In this document: positions 1 through 12,212 of the stretch, in pieces
Position numbering within the stretch: the stretch's first letter is position 1
Layout of the letters: each line of letters opens with the position of its first letter
From: Desulfocapsa sp.
GTDB lineage: Bacteria > Desulfobacterota > Desulfobulbia > Desulfobulbales > Desulfocapsaceae
DNA length: 12,212 nt
NCBI GenBank assembly: GCA_029942265.1
Contig: JAOZTO010000029.1
Location: forward strand, 1-12,212
Reading direction: 5' to 3'
The notes under the pieces: model-generated
What the model was told of the DNA's origin: nothing
Database searches by the model: none
What the model saw: the letters and a program-made list of their open reading frames with translations, nothing else
Position numbers and translations under genes: made by a program

Positions 1-609
1 ACCCGTGCTGTTGAATCCGGAATTGATATTGCCCTTGAACTTGGCAAACGTATTGATATCTTTGGAACGGGTGACATGGGAATAGGAAACACCACCCCTT
101 CTACAGCAATTGCAGCTATTATCACAGGAAAACCTCTGGAAGAACTTACTGGAAGAGGGACGGGGCTTGACGATGAGCAACTTGCCCACAAAAGAGATGT
201 TATCAAAACAATCCTTGAATGCAATAAACCTGATCCCAAAAATGGGCTTGATATCCTAGCCAACGTCGGAGGCTTTGAGATAGGTGGTATTGCTGGTTTA
301 ATATTAGGTGCGGCTGCACAGAAAAAACCGGTTGTGGTGGATGGTTTTATTTCAACGGCGGGTGCTCTTATTGCCTGTTCCATTGAACCCTTTGTAAGGG
401 ATTATATTATCTGTGCTCATCGTTCCATGGAACCTGGACATCGTGCCATGCAAGAAAAACTTGGCTGTAGCCCCCTTCTTGATCTTAATTTACGTTTAGG
501 TGAAGGGACAGGAGCAGCCCTTGCAATGAATTTAGTTGAGGCAGCAGTTGCAGTTCTGACAGAAGTAGCAACCTTTGAAGAAGCGGCAGTGGCAGGTTCC
601 GACAAGTAA
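1..609 (+). CDS. cobT: Nicotinate-nucleotide:dimethylbenzimidazole phosphoribosyltransferase CobT, 3' part
   Basis: Transfers the phosphoribosyl group of nicotinate mononucleotide to the lower-ligand base (classically 5,6-dimethylbenzimidazole), making the alpha-ribotide used by CobS. The gene enters from the left edge in frame 1, so only the C-terminal 202 residues are present; the family is about 350 residues. An internal ATG at 76 is not the true start, because family-like sequence (GIDIALELG, then [17 protein letters not shown]) is already in frame from base 1. Other family blocks are [14 protein letters not shown] and, near the end, [14 protein letters not shown]. The Glu in GEGTG (codon 502-504) matches the catalytic base known as Glu317 in Salmonella CobT. 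The real lower-ligand base cannot be told from sequence. It is followed after one base by cobS, so the two are probably translationally coupled. Confidence 0.96.
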
Positions 610-610
610 C

Positions 611-1405
611 ATGTGTGAAAAAGGCTTATTCAAAAAGGCTGCTTATAATCCACTGGCATCTTTTTTAGCAGGTGTGCGATTTCTCACTGTTATTCCAATC
701 CATTGGAAGAGAGAAAAGGATACTCTCTTTTTTCAGTCAAGCCTTATCTGGTTTCCATGGATTGGGCTTCTCATTGGGATGGGTTCAGCATGTATCATTT
801 CTTTGTGTGGTTCTTTTTTGCCTCCCTCAGTTTCTGCTGTATTTGCCATAACACTTCTTGCTGCTGTTTCAGGTTTTCTTCACATTGACGGGCTTGCAGA
901 TAGTGGAGACGGACTCCTCTGCAGTAGGCCTCGTAAACGCGCCCTTGAAATCATGCGAGACAGCAATACTGGTGCCATGGGACTGACAGTAGTGTTTTTA
1001 ATCTTACTAGGGAAATATGCTGCATTGTCGAGTCTTACAGTAGATAGCTTGTTACCTGCTATAATCCTTATTCCTGTGGCTGGCCGAACTGCAATATTAC
1101 TTAGTATGGCGATACTTCCATACGCCAGATCCGGAGATGGGCTTGGCCAACTTTTTTACTCAACGGAAAGTCGTATTCTAGCGATAGTAGGAATGCTTAG
1201 CTGCATACTGATTACTGCTTTAGTTGCTCCTCACTATATAGTGTTTGTTGGTGCTGCAATCCTAATTCCAGTAGGTCTATTCTCTTATTGGTGTTTTAAA
1301 ACACTTGGTGGAGCAACTGGAGATACTTTGGGTGCAATTTGTGAAATTACTGAATGTGCAGTTGCTGTAAGTATTGTTATTGCTCTTCATCCCTTTTCCC
1401 ATTAA
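611..1405 (+). CDS. cobS: Adenosylcobinamide-GDP ribazoletransferase (cobalamin synthase) CobS
   Basis: Integral membrane enzyme that joins adenosylcobinamide-GDP to alpha-ribazole (or its phosphate), the nucleotide-loop assembly step of cobalamin synthesis. From the ATG at 611 it is 264 residues, near the usual ~250. Seen: NPLASFLAGVRFLTVIPI near the N-terminus (family-typical FLTxIP), the acidic metal-binding motif HIDGLADSGDG at about residues 91-101, and RDSNTGAMG at about 116-124. Several hydrophobic segments fit a multi-pass membrane protein. An upstream in-frame TTG at 575 would add 12 residues (rich in K, R and Q) encoded inside cobT. I prefer 611 because it lies one base past the cobT stop and gives a family-like N-terminus. 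No strong ribosome-binding site is visible, which suits coupling to cobT. The GTP-transferring enzyme that makes its substrate (CobU/CobP) is not in the window. Confidence 0.94.
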   Translation: MCEKGLFKKAAYNPLASFLAGVRFLTVIPIHWKREKDTLFFQSSLIWFPWIGLLIGMGSACIISLCGSFLPPSVSAVFAITLLAAVSGFLHIDGLADSGDGLLCSRPRKRALEIMRDSNTGAMGLTVVFLILLGKYAALSSLTVDSLLPAIILIPVAGRTAILLSMAILPYARSGDGLGQLFYSTESRILAIVGMLSCILITALVAPHYIVFVGAAILIPVGLFSYWCFKTLGGATGDTLGAICEITECAVAVSIVIALHPFSH

Positions 1406-1430
1406 TTAATTGATATTAGAGTATGAATTT

Positions 1431-3998
1431 ATGAATGAATCCCAACCATATGAGCATGGTGGCAATATTTATGCCGCCGCAGATAAACATTCTGTAAAGC
1501 TCAATACCATCCTTGATTTTAGCGCAAATATCAATCCATTAGGCCCTCCTGAATGGTTACGGTCTGTTATAAGCTCTGAACTTGAATCCATCGTTCATTA
1601 TCCCGACCCCACTGCATCAGTACTTAAGAAGTGCATTGCTGATCAACACGGCCTTCCCGTTGAAAATATTCTTGCAGCAAACGGCTCTACTGAGTTGCTT
1701 TATCATTTAGCAAGGGTTCTTCACTGCAAGAGGGCTGTGATTCCAGTTCCATGTTATGTTGATTATATAAAAGTAATGGAGCTTTCAGGTGTTCCGGTAA
1801 AAACTGTTCCACTATTGGAAGAGCATGGGTTTGTTATTGATTTTCAGTATCTTAATACACTTTTGGTTCCAGGTGATCTGCTCATCATTGGGAATCCAAA
1901 CAACCCAACTGGAAAAAGTTTTCATAGTCATGATCTTGCTCGGTTGGCAGAAAAACACCTAGATGTTTTATTCCTGGTTGATGAAGCATTTCTTGACTTT
2001 ATCGATACCCGTGAAAGCCTTGCCGGTTCTGCAACAAATATAATTACGCTCCATTCACTCACCAAATTCTATGCTGTCCCCGGTTTACGTCTTGGCTATG
2101 GGGTTTTTCCTTCTACGATATGCAAGGCATTACAGAAGATACTACCGCCATGGACTGTCAATAGTCTTGCACAAAAAGTTGGTGAACGTGCAATTTCAGA
2201 TGTTAGTTATCAGCAGAAAACACGTAGTATTTGTACTCAAAACAGAATATCCTTTGCTCGAATGCTCGATGATTTCAAAATGCTAAAGGTGTTTCCAGCA
2301 GAAGCAAATTATTTCCTGATTCGTCTGTTAGGCAACCATTCGGTATCTTCTTTAAAAACCCGTTTGGCCGATAAAGGGATACTTATTAGAGATTGTGGCA
2401 ATTATTTGAATCTTGATAATTCCTTTTTTAGAATCGCAATAAAAAATGACACTGACAATCAACGCTTTATTGACATTCTTGCAACTATTCTTCCAGTTCA
2501 CAAAAAACGAAATATTCTCAAGAAAACGCCATCCTTGATGTTTCAGGGCACGTCATCAAATGCTGGGAAATCTATACTTACTACTGCGTTGTGCCGTATT
2601 CTTTTACAGGATGGTGTTCGGGTAGCGCCATTTAAAGCACAGAATATGTCTTTAAATTCCTATGTAACTCATGATGGTCTTGAAATGGGCAGGGCGCAGG
2701 TCGTACAGGCACAAGCTGCCCGTCTTGATCCTGATGTGTTGATGAATCCTATTCTTTTAAAGCCAAATTCAGATACTGGAAGTCAAGTCATTGTACGGGG
2801 CAAAGCTCTAAAGAATATGAACGTGATGGAGTATGTTAGCTTTAAAAAACAGGCAATGGGTATCGTCTCTGACTGTTATGATGAACTTGCGTCCCATTAT
2901 AATGTGATCATTCTTGAGGGTGCTGGATCACCTGGAGAAGTAAATCTAAAACGTCATGATATTGTCAATATGCGCATGGCACGCCACGCAGAGTCTCCTG
3001 TTGTTTTAGTTGGAGATATCGACAGGGGAGGTGTGTACGCTTCATTTGTCGGACATATGGAAGTGTTAAACCAGTGGGAACGTCAACTAGTTGCAGGGTT
3101 TTTGGTCAATCGCTTTCGTGGCAATGCTGATCTTCTTTATGATGCTCATGAGTATGTGAAAAATTATACCGGAAAAGATGTACTAGGTGTAATTCCCTAT
3201 CTTAAAAACCATGGTATTCCTGAAGAAGATTCTGTTTCTTTTAAAGAGGGTCTGTTTAATCGAACTAAACCAGAACACGAACATATCGTGATTGCCGTTA
3301 TTAATTTACCGCATATATCTAATTTTACAGACCTTGAACCATTTATTGCAGAAGCCGATGTACATCTTCGTATAGTCTCAGAGGTACATGATCTTCAACA
3401 CCCTGATGTAATTATTATTCCTGGATCAAAAAATGTCATGGGCGATCTTGCCATGCTTAAATCGTCAGGAATGGCTGAGGCGATCAGGAAACTTGGAGAA
3501 TCTGGCACTGAAATAGTCGGAATATGTGGTGGTTACCAAATGCTTGGTCGCTCCATTAAAGACCCTTACGGCATAGAATCATCAACAAAGTCAATCGATG
3601 CACTTTCTCTGATTGCAATAGAAACAACGCTTGATTCAACAAAAACCTTGCTAAGAAAATCAGGTACACACAAAAAATCTGGAAAAAATGTCACCGGGTA
3701 TGAAATCCACCATGGCCAAACGCTCTTTGCAAATGAAGCACTCTTTACTTACGACGATGGATCTGTCTGCGGTACAGCAGCTACACAAAAAAACATATGG
3801 GGAAGCTATCTTCACGGTATATTTGATTCGGACTCTTTTCGACGCTGGTTTATAGATACCATTCGTCAACGTAAAGGGTTGGCAGCTTACACTGGCGCTA
3901 TATCTATTTATGATTTAGAACCGGCTTTTGATCGTTTAGCGGATTCGGTGAGAGAGGCTATGGACATGGATAGTATATATCAATTACTGAGGCTTTGA
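1431..3998 (+). CDS. cobD-cobQ: Fused threonine-phosphate decarboxylase (CobD) - cobyric acid synthase (CobQ)
   Basis: One 855-residue protein carrying two B12 enzymes. Residues ~1-355 are a PLP-dependent fold-type I decarboxylase of the HisC-like CobD family, which makes (R)-1-amino-2-propanol O-2-phosphate from threonine phosphate. Seen: EHGGNIYAAA, DFSANINPLGPP, NPNNPTG (155-161), the cofactor Asp in DEAFLDF (D184) and SLTKFYAVPGLRLGYG with the PLP lysine K212. Residues ~366-855 are glutamine-dependent CobQ/CbiP: an ATP-binding loop GTSSNAGKS (373-381), FKAQNMSLNSYV, EGAGSPGEVNL, DIDRGGVYASF and a class I glutamine amidotransferase domain with C699 (GICGGYQ) and H795 (YLHGIF). Both halves look complete, with no stop or frameshift between them and only a short basic linker (~355-366). 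I chose the ATG at 1431, preceded by AGAG at nine bases, over a TTG at 1410. The order (CobD first) and fusion are less common than separate genes. Its two products are both substrates of CbiB, encoded next. Confidence 0.95.
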   Translation: MNESQPYEHGGNIYAAADKHSVKLNTILDFSANINPLGPPEWLRSVISSELESIVHYPDPTASVLKKCIADQHGLPVENILAANGSTELLYHLARVLHCKRAVIPVPCYVDYIKVMELSGVPVKTVPLLEEHGFVIDFQYLNTLLVPGDLLIIGNPNNPTGKSFHSHDLARLAEKHLDVLFLVDEAFLDFIDTRESLAGSATNIITLHSLTKFYAVPGLRLGYGVFPSTICKALQKILPPWTVNSLAQKVGERAISDVSYQQKTRSICTQNRISFARMLDDFKMLKVFPAEANYFLIRLLGNHSVSSLKTRLADKGILIRDCGNYLNLDNSFFRIAIKNDTDNQRFIDILATILPVHKKRNILKKTPSLMFQGTSSNAGKSILTTALCRILLQDGVRVAPFKAQNMSLNSYVTHDGLEMGRAQVVQAQAARLDPDVLMNPILLKPNSDTGSQVIVRGKALKNMNVMEYVSFKKQAMGIVSDCYDELASHYNVIILEGAGSPGEVNLKRHDIVNMRMARHAESPVVLVGDIDRGGVYASFVGHMEVLNQWERQLVAGFLVNRFRGNADLLYDAHEYVKNYTGKDVLGVIPYLKNHGIPEEDSVSFKEGLFNRTKPEHEHIVIAVINLPHISNFTDLEPFIAEADVHLRIVSEVHDLQHPDVIIIPGSKNVMGDLAMLKSSGMAEAIRKLGESGTEIVGICGGYQMLGRSIKDPYGIESSTKSIDALSLIAIETTLDSTKTLLRKSGTHKKSGKNVTGYEIHHGQTLFANEALFTYDDGSVCGTAATQKNIWGSYLHGIFDSDSFRRWFIDTIRQRKGLAAYTGAISIYDLEPAFDRLADSVREAMDMDSIYQLLRL
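3989..3992 (+). promoter_or_regulatory. Ribosome-binding site supporting the TTG start of cbiB
   Basis: GAGG lies nine bases before the TTG at 4002, inside the last codons of the cobD-cobQ fusion. It supports TTG as the true start of cbiB, since the next in-frame Met falls after the conserved N-terminal motif. Confidence 0.55.
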
Positions 3999-4001
3999 TC
4001 T

Positions 4002-5009
4002 TTGACTGTTAGCTTTGAACTTCTCATTGGGATTGCCATATTGCTAGATCTTCTCTTCGGAGATCCGCGTGCTATGCCGCATCCTGTAAGAGTTATTGGT
4101 TGGTTTTGTTCAACCACCGAAACTTTTTTTAGAAAACATCTGGGTTCTGAGTATTGTGCCGGTGTACTTTCATTTATAACAGTTCTCTTTGGTACAGTTG
4201 CTTTGGCGGCATCTTTTTTGGCAATATTACATCTGATATTTCCTGTACTAGCACAGATCTTTGCAGTTTTTCTTCTTTATACCTGCATTGCTGCACGAGA
4301 TCTTGTTGTTCATAGCCGTAGAGTATATTTAGCATTACAACGTCCAGATACGCTTTCAACAGCACGAGAAGCTGTTGCAGAAATAGTTGGCCGAGACACA
4401 AAAAGTCTTGATCGAAAAGGTATCATCAAAGCCTGTATTGAAACAGTTGCTGAGAATATGGTGGATGGCGTGACGGCACCACTGTTTTATGCTATACTGT
4501 TTTCAACATTATCACCTGTTACTGGAATTGACCCATTATTTCTTGCTGTGACAGGTGCCATGGGCTACAAGGCCGTAAACACCATGGATTCAATGTTTGG
4601 ATATAAGAACGACCGCTATATTGCATTTGGTCGAATGGCAGCAAAGGCAGATGATTTTGTCAATTTACTCCCTGCAAGGATCAGTGGATTGATTGTAATA
4701 CCTGCTGCTTTTGTACTTGGTCTTGACTGGAAAAATGCTTTTTTTGTGTACAAACGAGACAGATTTGCACATGCAAGTCCCAATGCTGCTCATACTGAAG
4801 CAGCCGTTGCTGGAGCACTTACAATTCAATTAGGTGGAACTTCAATATATTTTGGAAAAGAAATTGTAAAGCCTCATATTGGCGATGATAGTCGTTCGGT
4901 AACTGATAAAGATATACTACTAAGTAATCATTTGATGCTCATTTCTTCACTTTTCTTTGTGCTGCTTTTACTCATTCTCAGACATTTTTTTATGCGACTG
5001 TTTCTATGA
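4002..5009 (+). CDS. cbiB: Adenosylcobinamide-phosphate synthase CbiB (CobD in Pseudomonas nomenclature)
   Basis: Membrane enzyme that condenses adenosylcobyric acid with aminopropanol phosphate, giving adenosylcobinamide phosphate. It is 335 residues, close to the family norm. Seen: the N-terminal block LLDLLFGDPRAMPHPVRVIG; GIIKACIETVAENMVDGVTA with the acidic and polar residues typical of the family; and NTMDSMFGYKNDRYIAFGR followed by AKADDFVNLLPARISG. Hydrophobic stretches lie at about residues 54-97 and at the extreme C-terminus (~308-335). The start is TTG, three bases past the stop of the fusion gene and supported by a GAGG site. The stop overlaps the cbiA start as ATGA, a classic coupling arrangement. 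Both of its substrates come from the two domains of the protein encoded immediately upstream. Confidence 0.95.
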   Translation: MTVSFELLIGIAILLDLLFGDPRAMPHPVRVIGWFCSTTETFFRKHLGSEYCAGVLSFITVLFGTVALAASFLAILHLIFPVLAQIFAVFLLYTCIAARDLVVHSRRVYLALQRPDTLSTAREAVAEIVGRDTKSLDRKGIIKACIETVAENMVDGVTAPLFYAILFSTLSPVTGIDPLFLAVTGAMGYKAVNTMDSMFGYKNDRYIAFGRMAAKADDFVNLLPARISGLIVIPAAFVLGLDWKNAFFVYKRDRFAHASPNAAHTEAAVAGALTIQLGGTSIYFGKEIVKPHIGDDSRSVTDKDILLSNHLMLISSLFFVLLLLILRHFFMRLFL

Positions 5010-6358
5010 AAACATCATCATTTCTTATTGCAGGCACTGCGTCCGGATCTGGTAAAACCACTTTAACCATTGGTATTATGGCAGCACTCAAGAAGCGTGG
5101 TCTACGGGTTCAGCCGTTTAAATGTGGGCCTGATTTTATTGATCCAAGCCTTCACACAATGGTTACTAATGAACTTTCACCTAATCTTGATCTAAGGATG
5201 TGTGGTCGTGAGTTCTGTGTCAGCTCGTTTAATGAACGTATAGCAGGAAAAGATGTTGGGGTTGTAGAAGGAGTTATGGGGCTTTTTGATGGTGGAGTCG
5301 CAAGCTCTGCTGCACTTGCACGTGAACTGTCCTTACCTGTTATTTTAGTTGTGGATGCCCGTTCAGCAGCAGAAAGTGTTGCTGCTGTTGTTAAGGGATT
5401 TGAAGTGTATGCAGATGATGTTCATATAGCTGGAGTTATCTTTAATCGGGTTGGAAGTGCGCGACACAAAAAATTAATAGAAGATGGTATGGCTCTTGGC
5501 TGTGAAAGTGAGATAATCGGTTTTTTCCCAAGAGATATACGCTTTGAAATTCCTGATCGCCATCTTGGTCTGTATATGGGGGAAGAAAACCCCTTAGATC
5601 GCGAACAACTCTCACAGCTTGCAAGTGCGGTTGAATCACATCTTGATATCGATAAACTCTTGGAACTATCCGTTAAACATTCTACCACTTCTGCTAGTCC
5701 AAGTGTTGGGAAAATTCGTCAAAAGGCAAAGGTACGCCTTGCTGTTGCAAAAGATAAGGCATTCTGTTTTTATTACGAAGACAACTTTAAGATTCTTAAA
5801 GAGGCGGGTGCCGAACTTGTTTTTTTTAGCCCATTAACTGATACTACTTTACCGGACAACTGTAGTGGCATATATTTTGGTGGCGGGTATCCGGAACTCT
5901 ACGCTGAAAAACTAAGTGCTAATCGTTCCATGTTGCAAGCAGTATATGCTTTTGGTGAAGCTGGTGGGGTTATTTATGGGGAATGTGGCGGTTTTATGTA
6001 TTTATGTAAAAGAATCATGTCACTTGACAAACACTCATATCCGATGAGTGGCATATTTCCAATAGCGGTACAAATGAAACCAAGGCTATCCCGTCTTGGG
6101 TATCGTAATCCTCATCTCATGAAAAGTTGTTTCTTTGGCGATGCTAACCAGGAGCTTCATGGGCATGAATTTCATTATTCAGAAATTATTTTGTCAGATC
6201 AAACTGTTTATTCAGTTTATAAAATGGCAAATAATGAAGCAGAAGGCTTTGTATATAAGAATGTACTGGGAGGATATATCCATCTCCATTTGGCCAGAAG
6301 TAAAGATCCCGTACAAACATTTATCAATACGTTAATTAAATCACCTATCATCACATAA
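5006..6358 (+). CDS. cbiA: Cobyrinic acid a,c-diamide synthase CbiA (CobB-type)
   Basis: ATP- and glutamine-dependent amidation of the a and c carboxylates of (cobalt-)cobyrinic acid, in the cytoplasm. At 450 residues it has the normal length. Seen: an N-terminal nucleotide-binding loop GTASGSGKTT (10-19, K17), FKCGPDFIDP (38-47), VEGVMGLFDGG (87-97), and a C-terminal class I glutamine amidotransferase domain with nucleophile C327 in GECGGF and the histidine pair H426/H428 in GGYIHLHLA. This is the paralogue of the CobQ half of the upstream fusion; the GGYIHLH ending and the single-domain size mark it as CbiA/CobB rather than CobQ. Its ATG overlaps the cbiB stop by four bases. The symbol cbiA is preferred over cobB because the operon otherwise looks like the anaerobic pathway, but sequence alone does not separate the two uses. 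Confidence 0.95.
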   Translation: MKTSSFLIAGTASGSGKTTLTIGIMAALKKRGLRVQPFKCGPDFIDPSLHTMVTNELSPNLDLRMCGREFCVSSFNERIAGKDVGVVEGVMGLFDGGVASSAALARELSLPVILVVDARSAAESVAAVVKGFEVYADDVHIAGVIFNRVGSARHKKLIEDGMALGCESEIIGFFPRDIRFEIPDRHLGLYMGEENPLDREQLSQLASAVESHLDIDKLLELSVKHSTTSASPSVGKIRQKAKVRLAVAKDKAFCFYYEDNFKILKEAGAELVFFSPLTDTTLPDNCSGIYFGGGYPELYAEKLSANRSMLQAVYAFGEAGGVIYGECGGFMYLCKRIMSLDKHSYPMSGIFPIAVQMKPRLSRLGYRNPHLMKSCFFGDANQELHGHEFHYSEIILSDQTVYSVYKMANNEAEGFVYKNVLGGYIHLHLARSKDPVQTFINTLIKSPIIT

Positions 6359-6363
6359 TTATT

Positions 6364-7002
6364 ATGAATAGACTTACACAGATAAAACCCTATGAAATTG
6401 AGGCCGAAAGTTTCCGAATTATTGAAAATGAATTTTCTAAACAGACAGGAAGGCAGATCGAGGACTTTGATCCACGAGAATTTGCGATTATCCGTCGTGT
6501 GATTCACGCAACTGGAGATTTTTCTTTTGCCGAACGTATCCATTTTCACCCGGAAGCAATTGATTCAGGACTTGCTGCAATTCGATCAGGAAAAAATATT
6601 GTCACAGACGTGAATATGGCAGCTTCCGGTATCAGCCACACTTTGCTGACTCCTTTTGGTGGAAAAGTAATTTGCAAAGTGGCAGAAGCTGAAATTGCAA
6701 CTATAGCCAAAAATCAGGGGCGAACTCGTTCGCAAACTGCAATAGAGGCCGGAATGCGTGACAATGCAGGAATCATTGCCATTGGTAACGCACCCACCGC
6801 CCTGGTAACAGTTATGGATCTTATAGCGGCTGGTTCCCAGAAACCTGGTTTGATTGTCGGTGCTCCTGTGGGCTTTGTAAATGCACAAGAATCAAAAGAA
6901 ATACTTCTTGAACAAACGTATCCGTATATCGTTTGTGCAGGACGAAAGGGCGGTACAACGATATCGGTTGCTATTGTTAATGCCTTGCTTCGATTAGTTT
7001 AA
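6364..7002 (+). CDS. cbiC: (Cobalt-)precorrin-8 methylmutase CbiC/CobH
   Basis: Moves the C-11 methyl group of (cobalt-)precorrin-8 to C-12, giving (cobalt-)cobyrinic acid, the substrate of the CbiA encoded just upstream. It is 212 residues, the usual size. Seen: RRVIHATGDFSFAERI with the likely catalytic histidine H48 (equivalent to His43 of Pseudomonas CobH), GKNIVTDVNMAASGIS, IGNAPTALVTVMDLI, GLIVGAPVGFVNAQESKE and the C-terminal GRKGGTTISVAIVNALL. The start lies five bases after the cbiA stop and no clear Shine-Dalgarno is visible, so it probably depends on coupling. It is the last recognisable gene of the B12 operon here; a MITE copy starts 13 bases after its stop, so genes that once followed may have been lost. 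Confidence 0.95.
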   Translation: MNRLTQIKPYEIEAESFRIIENEFSKQTGRQIEDFDPREFAIIRRVIHATGDFSFAERIHFHPEAIDSGLAAIRSGKNIVTDVNMAASGISHTLLTPFGGKVICKVAEAEIATIAKNQGRTRSQTAIEAGMRDNAGIIAIGNAPTALVTVMDLIAAGSQKPGLIVGAPVGFVNAQESKEILLEQTYPYIVCAGRKGGTTISVAIVNALLRLV

Positions 7003-7015
7003 TCCCAGCTGACAA

Positions 7016-7171
7016 GTAAAAATCCGGCTAGCACCCCATCTTCGTTCGATTCGGCTTGTTCACATATGAACAAATATAGTTCACAAGCTGGATCAAGCGA
7101 ACCTGGGGCACTATCCAAACATTTACAGTTCAGTGGTTGATCCTATTTTTGAACCGAACCCGAATGTTTAT
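7016..7171 (+). mobile_element. MITE-like palindromic element, copy 1
   Basis: A ~156-bp non-coding element that closely matches the reverse complement of copy 2 (8781-8935). It starts GTAAAAATCCGG and ends CCGAATGTTTAT, an imperfect ~12-bp terminal inverted repeat. Within it, 7016-7126 is a 111-bp imperfect palindrome: the arms carry GGCTAGCACCCC and the near-complement GGGGCACTATCC outside, and TTCGTTCGATTCGGCTTG against CAAGCTGGATCAAGCGAA inside, around a loop with GTTCACATATGAAC. A 44-45-bp asymmetric tail follows (7127-7171). No flanking target duplication is found (GCTGACAA left, AGAGGTGT right), unlike copy 2, so this copy may be a recombination product or older. It lies between convergent cbiC and xseA. 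It encodes no protein and would need a transposase in trans. Confidence 0.85.
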
Positions 7172-7255
7172 AGAGGTGTTCAATTTGCTGAAAGTGCAGA
7201 GCCAACTGTAACAAGCGATGCTTTAGCAAAAGTTAGGGCAATTATCAGCGATTAA
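7133..7255 (+). pseudogene. Orphan 3' end of an unidentified gene (remnant)
   Basis: After the right end of MITE copy 1 a plus-strand frame reads NVYRGVQFAESAEPTV then TSDALAKVRAIISD and stops at TAA 7253-7255. The composition is protein-like and the codons resemble those of the neighbouring genes. The open frame extends back through the MITE to a TGA at 7067-7069, but the upstream part is element sequence. A GTG at 7133 would give a 40-residue product, without a ribosome-binding site. The stop overlaps the xseA stop by four bases tail to tail, as in naturally convergent genes. I read this as the C-terminal end of a gene whose body was deleted. I do not recognise the family. It could instead be a chance open frame of 31 codons beyond the element. 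Confidence 0.4.
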
Positions 7256-8610
7256 GAGGCTGTCGTCTTTATAACACCACATTCAACCACACCTTTGTGC
7301 AAACGGACTTGAAGTAGATCGCCCTGTTGCAATTTTGCACTATCACGCACAACGGTTTTACTACCATTTGTCTGGTTAATTTTAGTGGTAATTGAATATC
7401 CACGTGCAAGAGTTGCCAGCGGACTCACACTGTCAAGTTTGGCTACTTGACCTCTAAGTGCTACTTCTTTATTAAATATGGATGCATTGATTAAATAATT
7501 CAATTTTTCGGTGGCAAAATGAAGTCGCTGGTTTTGTAACTGAATCTTAGTGACAGGTGATTGGTTCTGTAATTTATCAGAGAGTTTACTGCACTGTGCT
7601 ATATCGTTATTTATCCGTTTTTCCATCACTGTAACAAGTCTAAGTGTTGCATGATCCAGTTGTAGTGAGTTATTGGTGAACAAAAAGTTCATATCGCCAA
7701 GTAACCTGCGACTTTGACTCACTCTGTGTTCCAAACTCTCAACTCTGTTACATATACTCCTGGTAAGACGATGTTGAAACTGACTGATTTGAGTTCGCAA
7801 AAGATTTCCATCCGGGATAATCATTTCGGCAGCAGCAGTAGGTGTGGGGGCACGGAGATCTGCACAAAAATCACTGATACTGAAATCCACTTCGTGACCA
7901 ACAGCCGAGACTATTGGAATATGTGATTGAGCAATAGCCCTTGCAAGCACTTCTTCGTTAAATGCCCAAAGATCTTCCAGCGATCCACCTCCTCGACAAA
8001 GTACAATGATAGACGTTTGGGGAATATTTTTATTTGTTGAAACTACAGCTTCTGCAATTTCAGTAGATGCACTGTTGCCTTGAACGCGAACGGGCACAAT
8101 ACTAATATTTACAGGAAAGTTTTGTTTTTTCCAGATAGTCAGGAAATCATGCACAGCAGCTCCTGTTGGAGAAGTGATCAAAACAATTTCCTTTGGATAT
8201 GAGCTAATCGGCTGTTTTCTTGCTTCGTCAAATAACCCCTCTGCCTGAAGTTCTTTTTTCAATTTTTCAAATTTGAGTTGCAGCGCACCACTTCCATGGA
8301 AGTCAATGGTATCAACAATTATCTGGTAATCGCCACGTGGTTCATAAATTGATATACGACCATGACAAATGACTTTCTGCCCGTCTGCAATCGCCTTTTC
8401 CAGATATCTGGCCTGGCCTTTGAAAAGAACAGCTTTTAACTGTGCCGAACTATCTTTAAGCGTAAAATATGAATGTCCAGAAAATGGACGACTTAAGTTT
8501 GAAATTTCACCTTGAACGCAAATAAATCGATATTTGCCTTCAACCATGTTTTTCAGTTCTCTGGTTAATGAAGAAACTGTATATACAGTATTTTTGTTGT
8601 TGGAAATCAT
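7252..8610 (-). CDS. xseA: Exodeoxyribonuclease VII large subunit XseA
   Basis: Catalytic large subunit of exonuclease VII, a metal-independent single-strand DNA exonuclease that cuts from both ends to oligonucleotides, working with several XseB small subunits. It is 452 residues, normal length. Seen: an N-terminal OB-fold DNA-binding domain (YTVSSLTRELK; CVQGEISNLSRPFSGHSYF; FKGQARYL), then catalytic-domain motifs SPTGAAVHDF (147-156), RGGGSLEDLWAFN (206-218) and VGHEVDFSISDFCADLRAPT (237-256) followed by PTAAAE. D155, R206, D242 and D251 sit in the blocks where essential residues are reported in the E. coli enzyme. A long helical region (~265-390) and a C-terminal ARGYS segment follow. The ATG at 8610 gives a family-like N-terminus. 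xseB, often adjacent, is not in the window. This is the only minus-strand gene and it is bracketed by inverted MITE copies. No convincing promoter was found. Confidence 0.96.
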   Translation of the reverse strand: MISNNKNTVYTVSSLTRELKNMVEGKYRFICVQGEISNLSRPFSGHSYFTLKDSSAQLKAVLFKGQARYLEKAIADGQKVICHGRISIYEPRGDYQIIVDTIDFHGSGALQLKFEKLKKELQAEGLFDEARKQPISSYPKEIVLITSPTGAAVHDFLTIWKKQNFPVNISIVPVRVQGNSASTEIAEAVVSTNKNIPQTSIIVLCRGGGSLEDLWAFNEEVLARAIAQSHIPIVSAVGHEVDFSISDFCADLRAPTPTAAAEMIIPDGNLLRTQISQFQHRLTRSICNRVESLEHRVSQSRRLLGDMNFLFTNNSLQLDHATLRLVTVMEKRINNDIAQCSKLSDKLQNQSPVTKIQLQNQRLHFATEKLNYLINASIFNKEVALRGQVAKLDSVSPLATLARGYSITTKINQTNGSKTVVRDSAKLQQGDLLQVRLHKGVVECGVIKTTAS

Positions 8611-8694
8611 AAGATAAACTCTATTTCTAAAAAAATAATGAAAAAGCTCTGAGTTGCAGTTTGTGAATAGACATGGCAGATTGAATAGGGTAGA

Positions 8695-8724
8695 TTGCCA
8701 GTCTGTTAAAATGGTTTTTATTAT
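8695..8724 (+). promoter_or_regulatory. Candidate sigma-70 promoter for the TPR-panC-panD operon
   Basis: TTGCCA (8695-8700) and TATTAT (8719-8724) are separated by 18 bases; each differs from consensus at one position. Orientation is toward the TPR gene. Transcription from here would place the whole of MITE copy 2 in the 5' leader, lengthening it from roughly 70 to about 225 bases. AT-rich sequence gives such matches by chance, so this is tentative. Confidence 0.4.
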
Positions 8725-8772
8725 GTCTGATACGATAAACTAATAATTCGCAAGTTTTTTGATAAAAGTAAA

Positions 8773-8780
8773 GAAAAAAG
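8773..8780 (+). repeat. Left target-site duplication of MITE copy 2
   Basis: GAAAAAAG immediately left of the element; the identical 8-mer lies immediately right at 8936-8943. The pair marks the insertion site. Confidence 0.75.
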
Positions 8781-8935
8781 GTAAAAATTCGGGTTGGGTT
8801 CAAAACAGCCCAGACCACTGAATTGTAAATATTTGGATAGTGCCCTAGGTTCGTTTGATCCGGCTTGTGAACTATATTTGTTCATATGTGAATAAGCCGG
8901 ATCGAACGAAGATGGGGTGCTAGCCGAATATTTAC
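8781..8935 (-). mobile_element. MITE-like palindromic element, copy 2, with 8-bp target duplication
   Basis: A 155-bp element, reverse complement of copy 1. Its ends are GTAAAAATTCGG and CCGAATATTTAC, a 12-bp terminal inverted repeat with one mismatch. The internal palindrome 8825-8935 also begins GTAAATATT and ends AATATTTAC, so the right terminus is shared by two nested inverted repeats. The inner stem pairs TTCGTTTGATCCGGCTT with AAGCCGGATCGAACGAA (one mismatch). Both sides are flanked by GAAAAAAG, a perfect 8-bp duplication, which fixes the boundaries and shows insertion by a DDE-type transposition mechanism. Eight-bp duplications occur in several IS families (for example ISL3, IS66 and IS1595); the parent element is not in the window. 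It sits 20 bases upstream of the TPR start. Confidence 0.9.
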
Positions 8936-8943
8936 GAAAAAAG
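8936..8943 (+). repeat. Right target-site duplication of MITE copy 2
   Basis: GAAAAAAG directly after the element's TTTAC end, identical to 8773-8780. Confidence 0.75.
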
Positions 8944-8955
8944 AATGGAGATGTA

Positions 8956-9648
8956 ATGAACGAAAAGAGCGCTTTTGATCCAAATCAGGTAGCAGATAAC
9001 GCCTATGTCGAGCCACGCGGGGTTCTTGACCAACTAAATCTTCCACTAGGTTTTGTTCGCTTTCTTAGAAAAAATAAGAAAGTATTACAGATTGTCGGTA
9101 TCCTTGTGGTTATCATCGTTGTTGTCGGATCACTTTATGATTCATATAGAGTGAATCGTATTTCAGACGCTGCCTCTGCTTTAGCCATATCTATGAGCAT
9201 TGAAGGAGAAGGGAAAGTCGTAGCGCTTCAACAAGTTGTCGATGATTTTTCGGGGACTGCCTCTGCTTTTTGGGCAAGTACCGAACTTGGTCATTTAGCA
9301 ATGACAGAGGGCAATTACAAAGAAGCTGGAAAATACTATTTAGGTGTACGGAACAATCTTTCTGAAACCAATCCTTTATATGGCCTCCTTACATTTGGTA
9401 TTGCACAGGCAGAAGAAGCCGATAAACAATATGCAAGTGCCATCGCCTCTTACATGTTGCTACGAGATATTGAAGGCTATAAAGATGAGGGCTTTATCGG
9501 AATGGCAAGAGTATTTGAAGCACAAGGAAAAAAACAGGAAGCTAAGACAGTCTACCAAGAATATCTTGCAAGTTTTCCAGGAGAGTTACAGAACGAACAA
9601 CTTTCACGCATGATTGAGGAGAAGATTACACGCCTGAACATTCAATAA
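8956..9648 (+). CDS. YfgM-like single-pass membrane protein with TPR-type repeats
   Basis: A 230-residue protein with a short cytoplasmic N-terminus ending in a basic stretch (FLRKNKK), one transmembrane segment (about residues 43-60, VLQIVGILVVIIVVVGSLY) and a helical periplasmic part. That part has tetratricopeptide-like repeats, such as AFWASTELGHLAMTEGNYKE, then YASAIASYMLLRDI and EGFIGMARVFEAQGKKQEA. This layout matches YfgM (TPR_21 family), which in E. coli associates with SecYEG and periplasmic chaperones; a similar role here is inference. An in-frame ATG at 8917 lies inside MITE copy 2 and would add 13 residues of element sequence. I reject it in favour of 8956, which has GGAG five bases upstream and follows the MITE insertion site. 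Its stop overlaps the panC start as TAATG, making it the first gene of the pantothenate operon. Confidence 0.8.
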   Translation: MNEKSAFDPNQVADNAYVEPRGVLDQLNLPLGFVRFLRKNKKVLQIVGILVVIIVVVGSLYDSYRVNRISDAASALAISMSIEGEGKVVALQQVVDDFSGTASAFWASTELGHLAMTEGNYKEAGKYYLGVRNNLSETNPLYGLLTFGIAQAEEADKQYASAIASYMLLRDIEGYKDEGFIGMARVFEAQGKKQEAKTVYQEYLASFPGELQNEQLSRMIEEKITRLNIQ

Positions 9649-12123: not shown

Positions 12124-12212
12124 GTAAATATTCGGCTAGCACCCCATCTTCGCTTGATCCGGCCTATTCACATATGAACTAATATAGTTCACATGCCGGA
12201 TCAAGCGAACCT
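12124..12212 (+). mobile_element. MITE-like palindromic element, copy 3, cut by the window end
   Basis: The first 89 bases match copy 1 in the same orientation: GTAAATATTCGGCTAGCACC at the left end, then the palindromic core to AAGCGAACCT at the last base. The inner arms TTCGCTTGATCCGGC and GCCGGATCAAGCGAA pair perfectly over 15 bp. The left flank is AAGGCCTA, so the matching duplication should lie just beyond the right end. It begins 35 bases after the aminotransferase stop; that gap holds no gene or clear terminator. Confidence 0.9.

What the first reader, a model, noticed from the sequence alone, without database searches (positions are those of the whole stretch)
8773..8943. Non-coding 155-bp MITE with a perfect 8-bp target duplication
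The sequence shows a 155-bp element with 12-bp terminal inverted repeats (GTAAAAATTCGG / CCGAATATTTAC), flanked on both sides by GAAAAAAG. Together with two further copies in 12 kb this indicates a transposition-competent, probably high-copy MITE family that depends on a transposase in trans. I do not recognise it as a named family.
Basis: partly seen in the sequence, partly recalled or inferred. Interest (0 to 1): 0.75.

Follow-up and report, generated by a model that had tools for sequence, protein, structure and literature searches.

The report
High-copy IS66-type MITE in Desulfocapsa-like bacterium
A 155-base piece of DNA that codes for nothing has been copied dozens of times through the genome of an uncultured sulfur bacterium, and its ends match those of a subgroup of ordinary jumping genes (IS66 type) found in related bacteria, which probably supplied the enzyme that moved it.

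Summary
Window 8781-8935 is a 155-bp element with 12-bp terminal inverted repeats (11 of 12 matching), flanked by GAAAAAAG on both sides. It is a high-copy MITE: the genome holds 181 exact copies of the 12-base terminus against 0 for the reversed control pattern and 82 strict right ends. Of 55 testable right ends (96 collected), 27 carry perfect 8-bp duplications; exchanged flanks gave none. Two copies have paralogous empty sites with a single target copy.

IS66-family insertion sequences that also carry a DruA-domain gene end in GTAAATATTCGG in four other Desulfobacterota genomes (7 of 8 ends identical). One of these four has a perfect 8-bp duplication (L238). ISBst12-type IS66 elements also make 8-bp duplications but end in GTAACTATTCAG. 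No intact partner with these ends was found in the host assembly; its one IS66-DruA locus is cut off at both contig ends.

The element is a 44-bp arm plus a 111-bp hairpin kept paired across copies. New member of a known kind; current activity is not shown.

The parts
8773..8780 (.). left 8-bp target site duplication GAAAAAAG
   Evidence: sequence; duplications at sister copies
8781..8935 (+). MITE copy, 155 bp, full length
8781..8792 (+). left terminal inverted repeat GTAAAAATTCGG
   Evidence: family consensus GTAAATATTCGG
8781..8824 (+). 44-bp left arm with a small stem-loop of its own
   Evidence: fold
8825..8836 (+). inner copy of the terminus, GTAAATATTTGG, base of the large hairpin
   Evidence: (I3)
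8825..8935 (.). 111-bp near-perfect palindrome (long hairpin as single strand)
   Evidence: fold of the whole element -77.5 kcal/mol, z -10.9; pairing kept across 20 copies
8924..8935 (+). right terminal inverted repeat CCGAATATTTAC
8936..8943 (.). right 8-bp target site duplication GAAAAAAG
7016..7170 (-). second copy, 88% identical, no duplication, one terminus lacking its outer base
12124..12212 (-). third copy, right part only, cut by the end of the contig

Best explanation
A non-autonomous, non-coding transposable element (MITE) of the IS66 type. It keeps the terminal recognition sequence GTAAATATTCGG at both ends. A DDE transposase of an IS66-family element, most likely of the subgroup that also carries a DruA-domain gene, acted on these ends and joined the element to staggered cuts 8 bp apart, which repair turned into the 8-bp duplications. 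SHOWN by sequence: matching ends, 8-bp duplications at many copies, single targets at two paralogous empty sites, IS66-DruA elements with the same ends in other Desulfobacterota, one with an 8-bp duplication. INFERRED: that this IS66-DruA group supplied the transposase, that the partner was in the host lineage, and the chemistry. The long hairpin is a kept feature of the family; whether it serves mobility, transcript behaviour or nothing is not known.
For: High copy number in the own genome. 27 of 55 testable right ends with perfect 8-bp duplications, 0 in 11,000 control draws. Empty sites: C59 copy against C40, 64 of 65 bases identical across the junction with a single TAACGAAG; C374 copy against uninterrupted copies of a second repeat with a single CTATTCTC. 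Six copies of 62, 112, 153, 157 (two) and 174 bp with 8-bp duplications in three other genomes of the genus. IS66-DruA elements with both ends: Desulforhopalus sp. GLR1684 (L223/L234, 2639 bp), Ca. Desulfobacula maris (L235, 2626 bp), G310 (L273, 2490 bp), G346 (L238, 2701 bp, duplication AAATAATT); first 12 bases identical to GTAAATATTCGG at 7 of 8 ends; the last three were found by protein similarity, blind to the ends; Pfam finds IS66 transposase and DruA domains in all four. A second element end in the Desulforhopalus genome shares its first 16 bases with the MITE left end. ISBst12-type IS66 elements in the same bacterial family (G001, G027, G053) end in GTAACTATTCAG, 10 of 12.
Against: No IS66 element with these ends is in the host assembly: PF03050 finds only C325 (a TnpB/DruA/IS66-transposase locus cut at both contig ends, best 8 of 12 to the terminus near them) and a weak hit at C150 that Pfam assigns to another family, DDE_Tnp_IS240. 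Only 1 of the 4 IS66-DruA elements with both ends has a matching 8-bp duplication, and the transposase frame of the G310 element is short (331 aa). Similarity between MITE and IS ends is 12-16 bases; I saw none inside. The Desulforhopalus element was itself found through its end pattern. 24 of 55 testable right ends have fewer than 7 of 8 matching flank bases; some lack a true left end or are decayed, one (C85) has a 9-bp repeat instead (read by eye).
Confidence: 0.85

Rival explanations
1. A MITE moved by a transposase of another family that also makes 8-bp duplications (IS1595, IS256, ISL3 or IS6 type; their duplication lengths are recalled).
For: An 8-bp duplication alone is not specific. 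One end with the first 16 bases of the MITE left end lies directly beside an IS1595-type gene (PF12762, PF12760) in G046 (L227). The host has an IS240/IS6-type gene at C150 whose ends I did not determine.
Against: The L227 end continues like IS66-DruA-type ends of G056 (63 bases at 93.7% with L224, 53 at 96.2% with L225, 49 at 81.6% with L223), and the second copy of the IS1595-type gene in L227 lacks that end. In 4 of 4 species where both ends of an element with this terminus were seen, it carries IS66 transposase and DruA domains.
Confidence: 0.09
2. A MITE mobilised by the ISBst12-type IS66 element (DUF6444 type) such as the 1728-bp element of G001.
For: G001 carries both, in the same genus; ends GTAACTATTCAG match 10 of 12; one of its three copies has an 8-bp duplication.
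Against: Positions 5 and 11 of the terminus differ between the groups. The own genome has no match to this transposase, and of the 7 other genus genomes with MITE matches only G001 has full copies and G018 a 78-base fragment.
Confidence: 0.05
3. A REP/BIME-like or terminator-like structural repeat rather than a transposon; the duplications are coincidence.
For: Long, kept hairpin; mostly outside open frames, 20 of 26.
Against: 27 perfect 8-bp duplications against 0 in the control, empty sites, no enrichment between convergent genes (2 of 19 classified) and no orientation preference (6 same, 5 opposite), no terminator pattern at the window copy.
Confidence: 0.01

Closest known systems
IS66 family, DruA-carrying elements (L223, L235, L238, L273)
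   Same: terminus GTAAATATTCGG (7 of 8 ends identical); 8-bp duplication in L238
   Different: 2.5-2.7 kb, code for an IS66 transposase and a DruA-domain protein; beyond 12-16 end bases I saw no similarity to the MITE
IS66 family, ISBst12 group (G001 element; ISDge4, PMC12898284, one passage seen)
   Same: 8-bp direct repeat; ends of similar form (ISDge4 GTGACTACTCAGCA / GTAACTGCTCAGCA; G001 GTAACTATTCAGCG)
   Different: terminus of G001 differs at 2 of 12 bases; single transposase gene; group assignment of the G001 element is my inference
MITECca01 of Cardinium (PMC9769881, passages seen)
   Same: bacterial MITE of about 240 bp, 169 copies, most abundant mobile element of its genome, mostly intergenic
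   Different: derived from an IS982-family element; parental IS present in the genome
MITEPsy1 of Pseudomonas syringae (PMC3189936, passages seen)
   Same: short non-coding element with ends like those of an IS; shown to transpose
   Different: 4-bp CTAG/YTAA duplications; resembles instead the second MITE family noticed here

Membership tests
MITE | short (<300 bp) and non-coding | tested here: met
   155 bp; listed frames that reach into it (8627-8818 minus, 8917-9648 plus) only run in from outside; the second is an upstream extension of the TPR gene
MITE | terminal inverted repeats | tested here: met
   12 bp; of 31 copies with at least 7/8 duplications, left and right termini agree at 12 of 12 in 12, 11 of 12 in 18, 10 of 12 in 1
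MITE | target site duplication of fixed length | tested here: met
   8 bp; 27 of 55 perfect, 0 in 11,000 control draws
MITE | multiple dispersed copies | tested here: met
   82 strict right ends
MITE | an autonomous element with matching ends in the same genome | tested here: inconclusive
   not found in this 88.9%-complete, 588-contig assembly, whose one IS66-DruA locus has both ends cut off; present in other Desulfobacterota
IS66-derived element | ends beginning GTAA and matching an IS66-family element | tested here: met
   12 of 12 at 7 of 8 ends of IS66-DruA elements
IS66-derived element | 8-bp duplication made by the matching IS66 element | tested here: met
   L238 AAATAATT/AAATAATT; 3 other elements with both ends lack it
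IS66-derived element | mobilised by an IS66 transposase | not testable with these tools
   needs an assay
REP/BIME repeat | palindromic unit without terminal duplications (definition recalled) | tested here: not met
   duplications present
Rfam RNA family | match above the gathering score | tested here: not met
   only MIR2606 at 38.5 bits against a gathering score of 139.7

The most novel reading that the evidence does not exclude
An IS66 subgroup in which a DruA-domain protein (the family of the Druantia defence protein) works as a transposition partner drives a hairpin MITE family, and the hairpin is kept by selection because it is part of the mobility substrate or silences read-through transcription. 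Nine of 47 pairs changed on both sides while 97.7% of cells stayed paired. Of the nearly fixed wobble-type positions four are G-T and none A-C, which would fit an RNA-level role, but five other positions are nearly fixed as other mismatches, and over all sites G-T and A-C occur at 16 and 10. Arm homogenisation by template switching would give the same covariation.
Probability: 0.15. Interest if true: 0.6.

Novelty: new member of a known kind. Interest (0 to 1): 0.35.

Why it matters
It assigns an unnamed, genome-shaping repeat family to a defined transposase class. It suggests that IS66-type elements can seed MITE families at high copy; none of the five papers that I opened from the searches pairing IS66 with MITE terms describes one in the passages I saw (searches; opened). 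It points to an IS66 subgroup that carries a DruA-domain gene (searches found no paper in the library holding IS66 with DruA or DUF4338). It also helps explain why this genome is in 588 pieces: 37 of 96 right ends sit within 100 bases of a contig end.

Tried and rejected
Plasmid and phage collections: no match at blastn 'distant'. Rfam: one sub-threshold microRNA-hairpin hit, taken as chance. Sixteen lone-terminus loci of relatives were inspected for neighbouring transposase genes; by reading the translations I saw ordinary genes only, no family search was run on them. The C150 hit to PF03050 was set aside: it is weak and Pfam puts it in DDE_Tnp_IS240. The idea that the inner 111-bp palindrome moves alone: among the 23 right ends without a duplication listed, the 9 whose best partner was the inner terminus (110-112 bp) had at most 5 of 8 matching flank bases. 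A 112-bp copy with an 8-bp duplication exists in G018; I did not establish whether it is the same module. The terminator/BIME idea was rejected on gene orientation. The G-T over A-C asymmetry was left as suggestive only. A DruA remnant at C6 beside a MITE was checked and lies outside the element. A first duplication census (90 right ends, 53 counted, 27 perfect, 3 at 7/8) was replaced, because two of its right ends had been cut by my own stretches rather than by contig ends and some loci had been left out; one (C100) remains cut by my stretch. Papers: for PMC9769881, PMC3189936, PMC12888890, PMC12898284, PMC3281130, PMC6713103 and PMC4853749 I saw search listings and the passages returned by 'find', not the whole texts; five of the eight papers listed were not opened.

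Full report
OBSERVATION. The sequence at 8773-8943 is as described: an 8-bp GAAAAAAG, a 155-bp element, and GAAAAAAG again. The termini GTAAAAATTCGG and CCGAATATTTAC match at 11 of 12 positions. The window is a complete contig (C29) of a 2.93-Mb, 588-contig, 88.9%-complete assembly. The TPR protein next to the element is closest, among the named proteins listed, to Desulfocapsa (63-64% identity), so I take the host as a Desulfocapsa-like bacterium; that name is an inference. The element sits between divergent genes, xseA (7252-8610, minus) and the TPR gene (plus; I read its start as ATG 8956), and ends just upstream of what I read as the ribosome-binding site of the latter.

COPY NUMBER AND DUPLICATIONS. 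BLAST in the own genome scored 40 of 259 first-look candidates and gave 40 distinct places. The exact 12-base terminus GTAAAWATTCGG occurs 181 times, its reversed control 0 times (100 places listed). The stricter 21-base right end occurs 82 times, control 0. From the loci fetched I collected 96 distinct right ends (up to 2 mismatches in 17 bases). Of these, 37 lie within 100 bases of a contig end on the element side, and 4 more gave no left-end candidate (one of them because my stretch was too short). Of the remaining 55, 27 have perfect 8-bp duplications, 4 have 7 of 8, 1 has 6 of 8 and 23 have fewer. With right flanks exchanged among copies (11,000 draws), 8/8 never occurred and 7/8 occurred in 0.04%. 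One of the remainder (C85) shows a perfect 9-bp repeat by eye. The duplicated 8-mers are AT-rich without a clear motif (27 examined). Of 30 copies with at least 7/8 in the first census, 4 had too little flank; of the other 26, 6 lie inside open frames of at least 120 codons, against 79% for random points in the same stretches. A second pass with other frame rules found 4 inside, 2 without a flanking frame and 19 between genes: 11 tandem, 6 divergent, 2 convergent, with no orientation preference (6 same, 5 opposite).

EMPTY SITES. Joining the flanks in silico and searching the fetched own-genome stretches gave two clear paralogous empty sites. The C59 copy has an uninterrupted counterpart in C40, identical at 64 of 65 bases across the junction, with a single TAACGAAG. 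The C374 copy sits in a second repeat whose uninterrupted copies carry a single CTATTCTC. A third case (C275 against C136) has small gaps near the junction and I do not count it. No orthologous empty site for the window copy could be tested; the relatives held are different species.

ANATOMY. The family consensus is a 44-45-bp left arm, which starts with the terminus and can form a small stem-loop, followed by a palindrome of about 111 bp that starts with an inner copy of the terminus and ends with the right terminus. As a single RNA strand the window copy folds at -77.5 kcal/mol, z -10.9. In an alignment of 20 full-length copies (18 from the own genome, 2 from relatives) the palindrome keeps 97.7% of cells paired, with both-side changes at 9 of 47 pairs; 0 of 500 shuffles reached this (mean 1.8), and slid structures gave 1-2. 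The structure was taken from the window copy and the copies are related, so both controls lean in its favour. Own-genome length variants of 134, 135 and 143 bp have lost sequence at the hairpin tip, and those of 92 and 104 bp more of it, all five with perfect duplications. Full-length copies lie 3.2-9.7% from the consensus (25 copies), so the family is not a single recent burst.

RELATIVES. Seven of 19 other genomes of the genus give BLAST matches, 1-8 each. Six copies with perfect 8-bp duplications were found there, of 62, 112, 153, 157 (two) and 174 bp, in three genomes. In 93 genomes of the family, own included, the 16-base pattern GTAAATATTCGGSTWG occurs in 10, with 156 of 173 hits in the own genome.

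THE ENGINE. IS66-family elements were looked for first because of the GTAA end and the 8-bp duplication (a recalled trait of the family; for ISDge4, an IS66-family element, and for two IS66 elements of Paracoccus it is in passages seen). G001, a MITE carrier of the genus, has three identical 1728-bp elements with ends GTAACTATTCAGCG, one of the three with the duplication ATTGCTTC. G027 and G053 have the same type with duplications. These match the MITE terminus at 10 of 12. A better match came from the pattern search. Contig C419 of G056, identified by name as Desulforhopalus sp. GLR1684, holds a 2639-bp element with GTAAATATTCGGCTT at both ends, an IS66 transposase (PF03050, E 1.1e-49) and a DruA-domain protein (PF14236, E 9.9e-47). 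Searching with that transposase, blind to the ends, gave further elements of the same make-up: Ca. Desulfobacula maris (2626 bp, ends 12 and 11 of 12), G310 (2490 bp, 12 and 12; its transposase frame is short, 331 aa) and G346 (2701 bp, 12 and 12, with the perfect duplication AAATAATT). The phylum-wide search matched 2 of 345 genomes at E 1e-40. A Methylococcales contig has a more distant one with interrupted transposase frames (11 and 10 of 12, second end at the contig end). The fourth locus (Desulfamplus) showed no end. Three of the four elements with both ends lack a matching duplication. Another element end in G056 shares its first 16 bases with the MITE left end.

WHAT IS MISSING. In the host assembly PF03050 finds C325 and one weak hit at C150, which is IS240-type. 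C325 carries TnpB, DruA-domain and IS66 transposase genes but runs off both contig ends, and nothing better than 8 of 12 to the terminus lies near them. A second DruA match, at C6, is a remnant. The partner may be outside the bin, unassembled because it is repeated, or lost. Present-day mobility is therefore not shown.

KNOWN OR NEW. Bacterial MITEs are a known kind; MITECca01 (IS982-type) and MITEPsy1 are comparable in style (passages). In the passages I saw of five papers opened from searches pairing IS66 with MITE terms none describes an IS66-type MITE, and no paper in the library holds IS66 together with DruA or DUF4338. The library lacks most subscription papers, and ISfinder was not available, so this is not proof of absence. 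PADLOC's Druantia DruA model matches three element-borne proteins only weakly (16.6-23.8 bits), so they are DruA-domain proteins, not shown to be defence genes.

Noticed in passing
G000:C51:9837-9975 (L013:1362-1500) and other contigs of the same genome: A second MITE family: 139 bp, ends GAGGCTGTCCGAGAAT, flanked by CTAG on both sides in 17 of 17 copies in which both ends were recognised (26 loci scanned); 40 of 139 candidates scored. One copy lies in the CTAG of the first MITE, and one copy of the first MITE lies in it.
   Followed up: partly
L223, L235, L238, L273 and own-genome C325 (L222): IS66-family elements that carry a DruA-domain gene next to the transposase; in C325 it lies between the TnpB and transposase genes.
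   Followed up: partly
G000:C6:165-533: A shortened DruA-domain reading frame (122 aa) about 60 bases from a truncated MITE, outside the element.
   Followed up: partly
L227 (G046:C93), 1707-2700 and 3674-4420: Two near-identical IS1595-type gene copies (PF12760, PF12762 in the first), one directly abutting an IS66-DruA-type element end; apparently a chimera of two elements.
   Followed up: partly
window 76-7002: A cobalamin biosynthesis cluster (DBI_PRT/CobT-like, CobS, a fused aminotransferase-CobQ-like 862-aa frame, CobD/CbiB, CobB/CbiA-like, CbiC).
   Followed up: no
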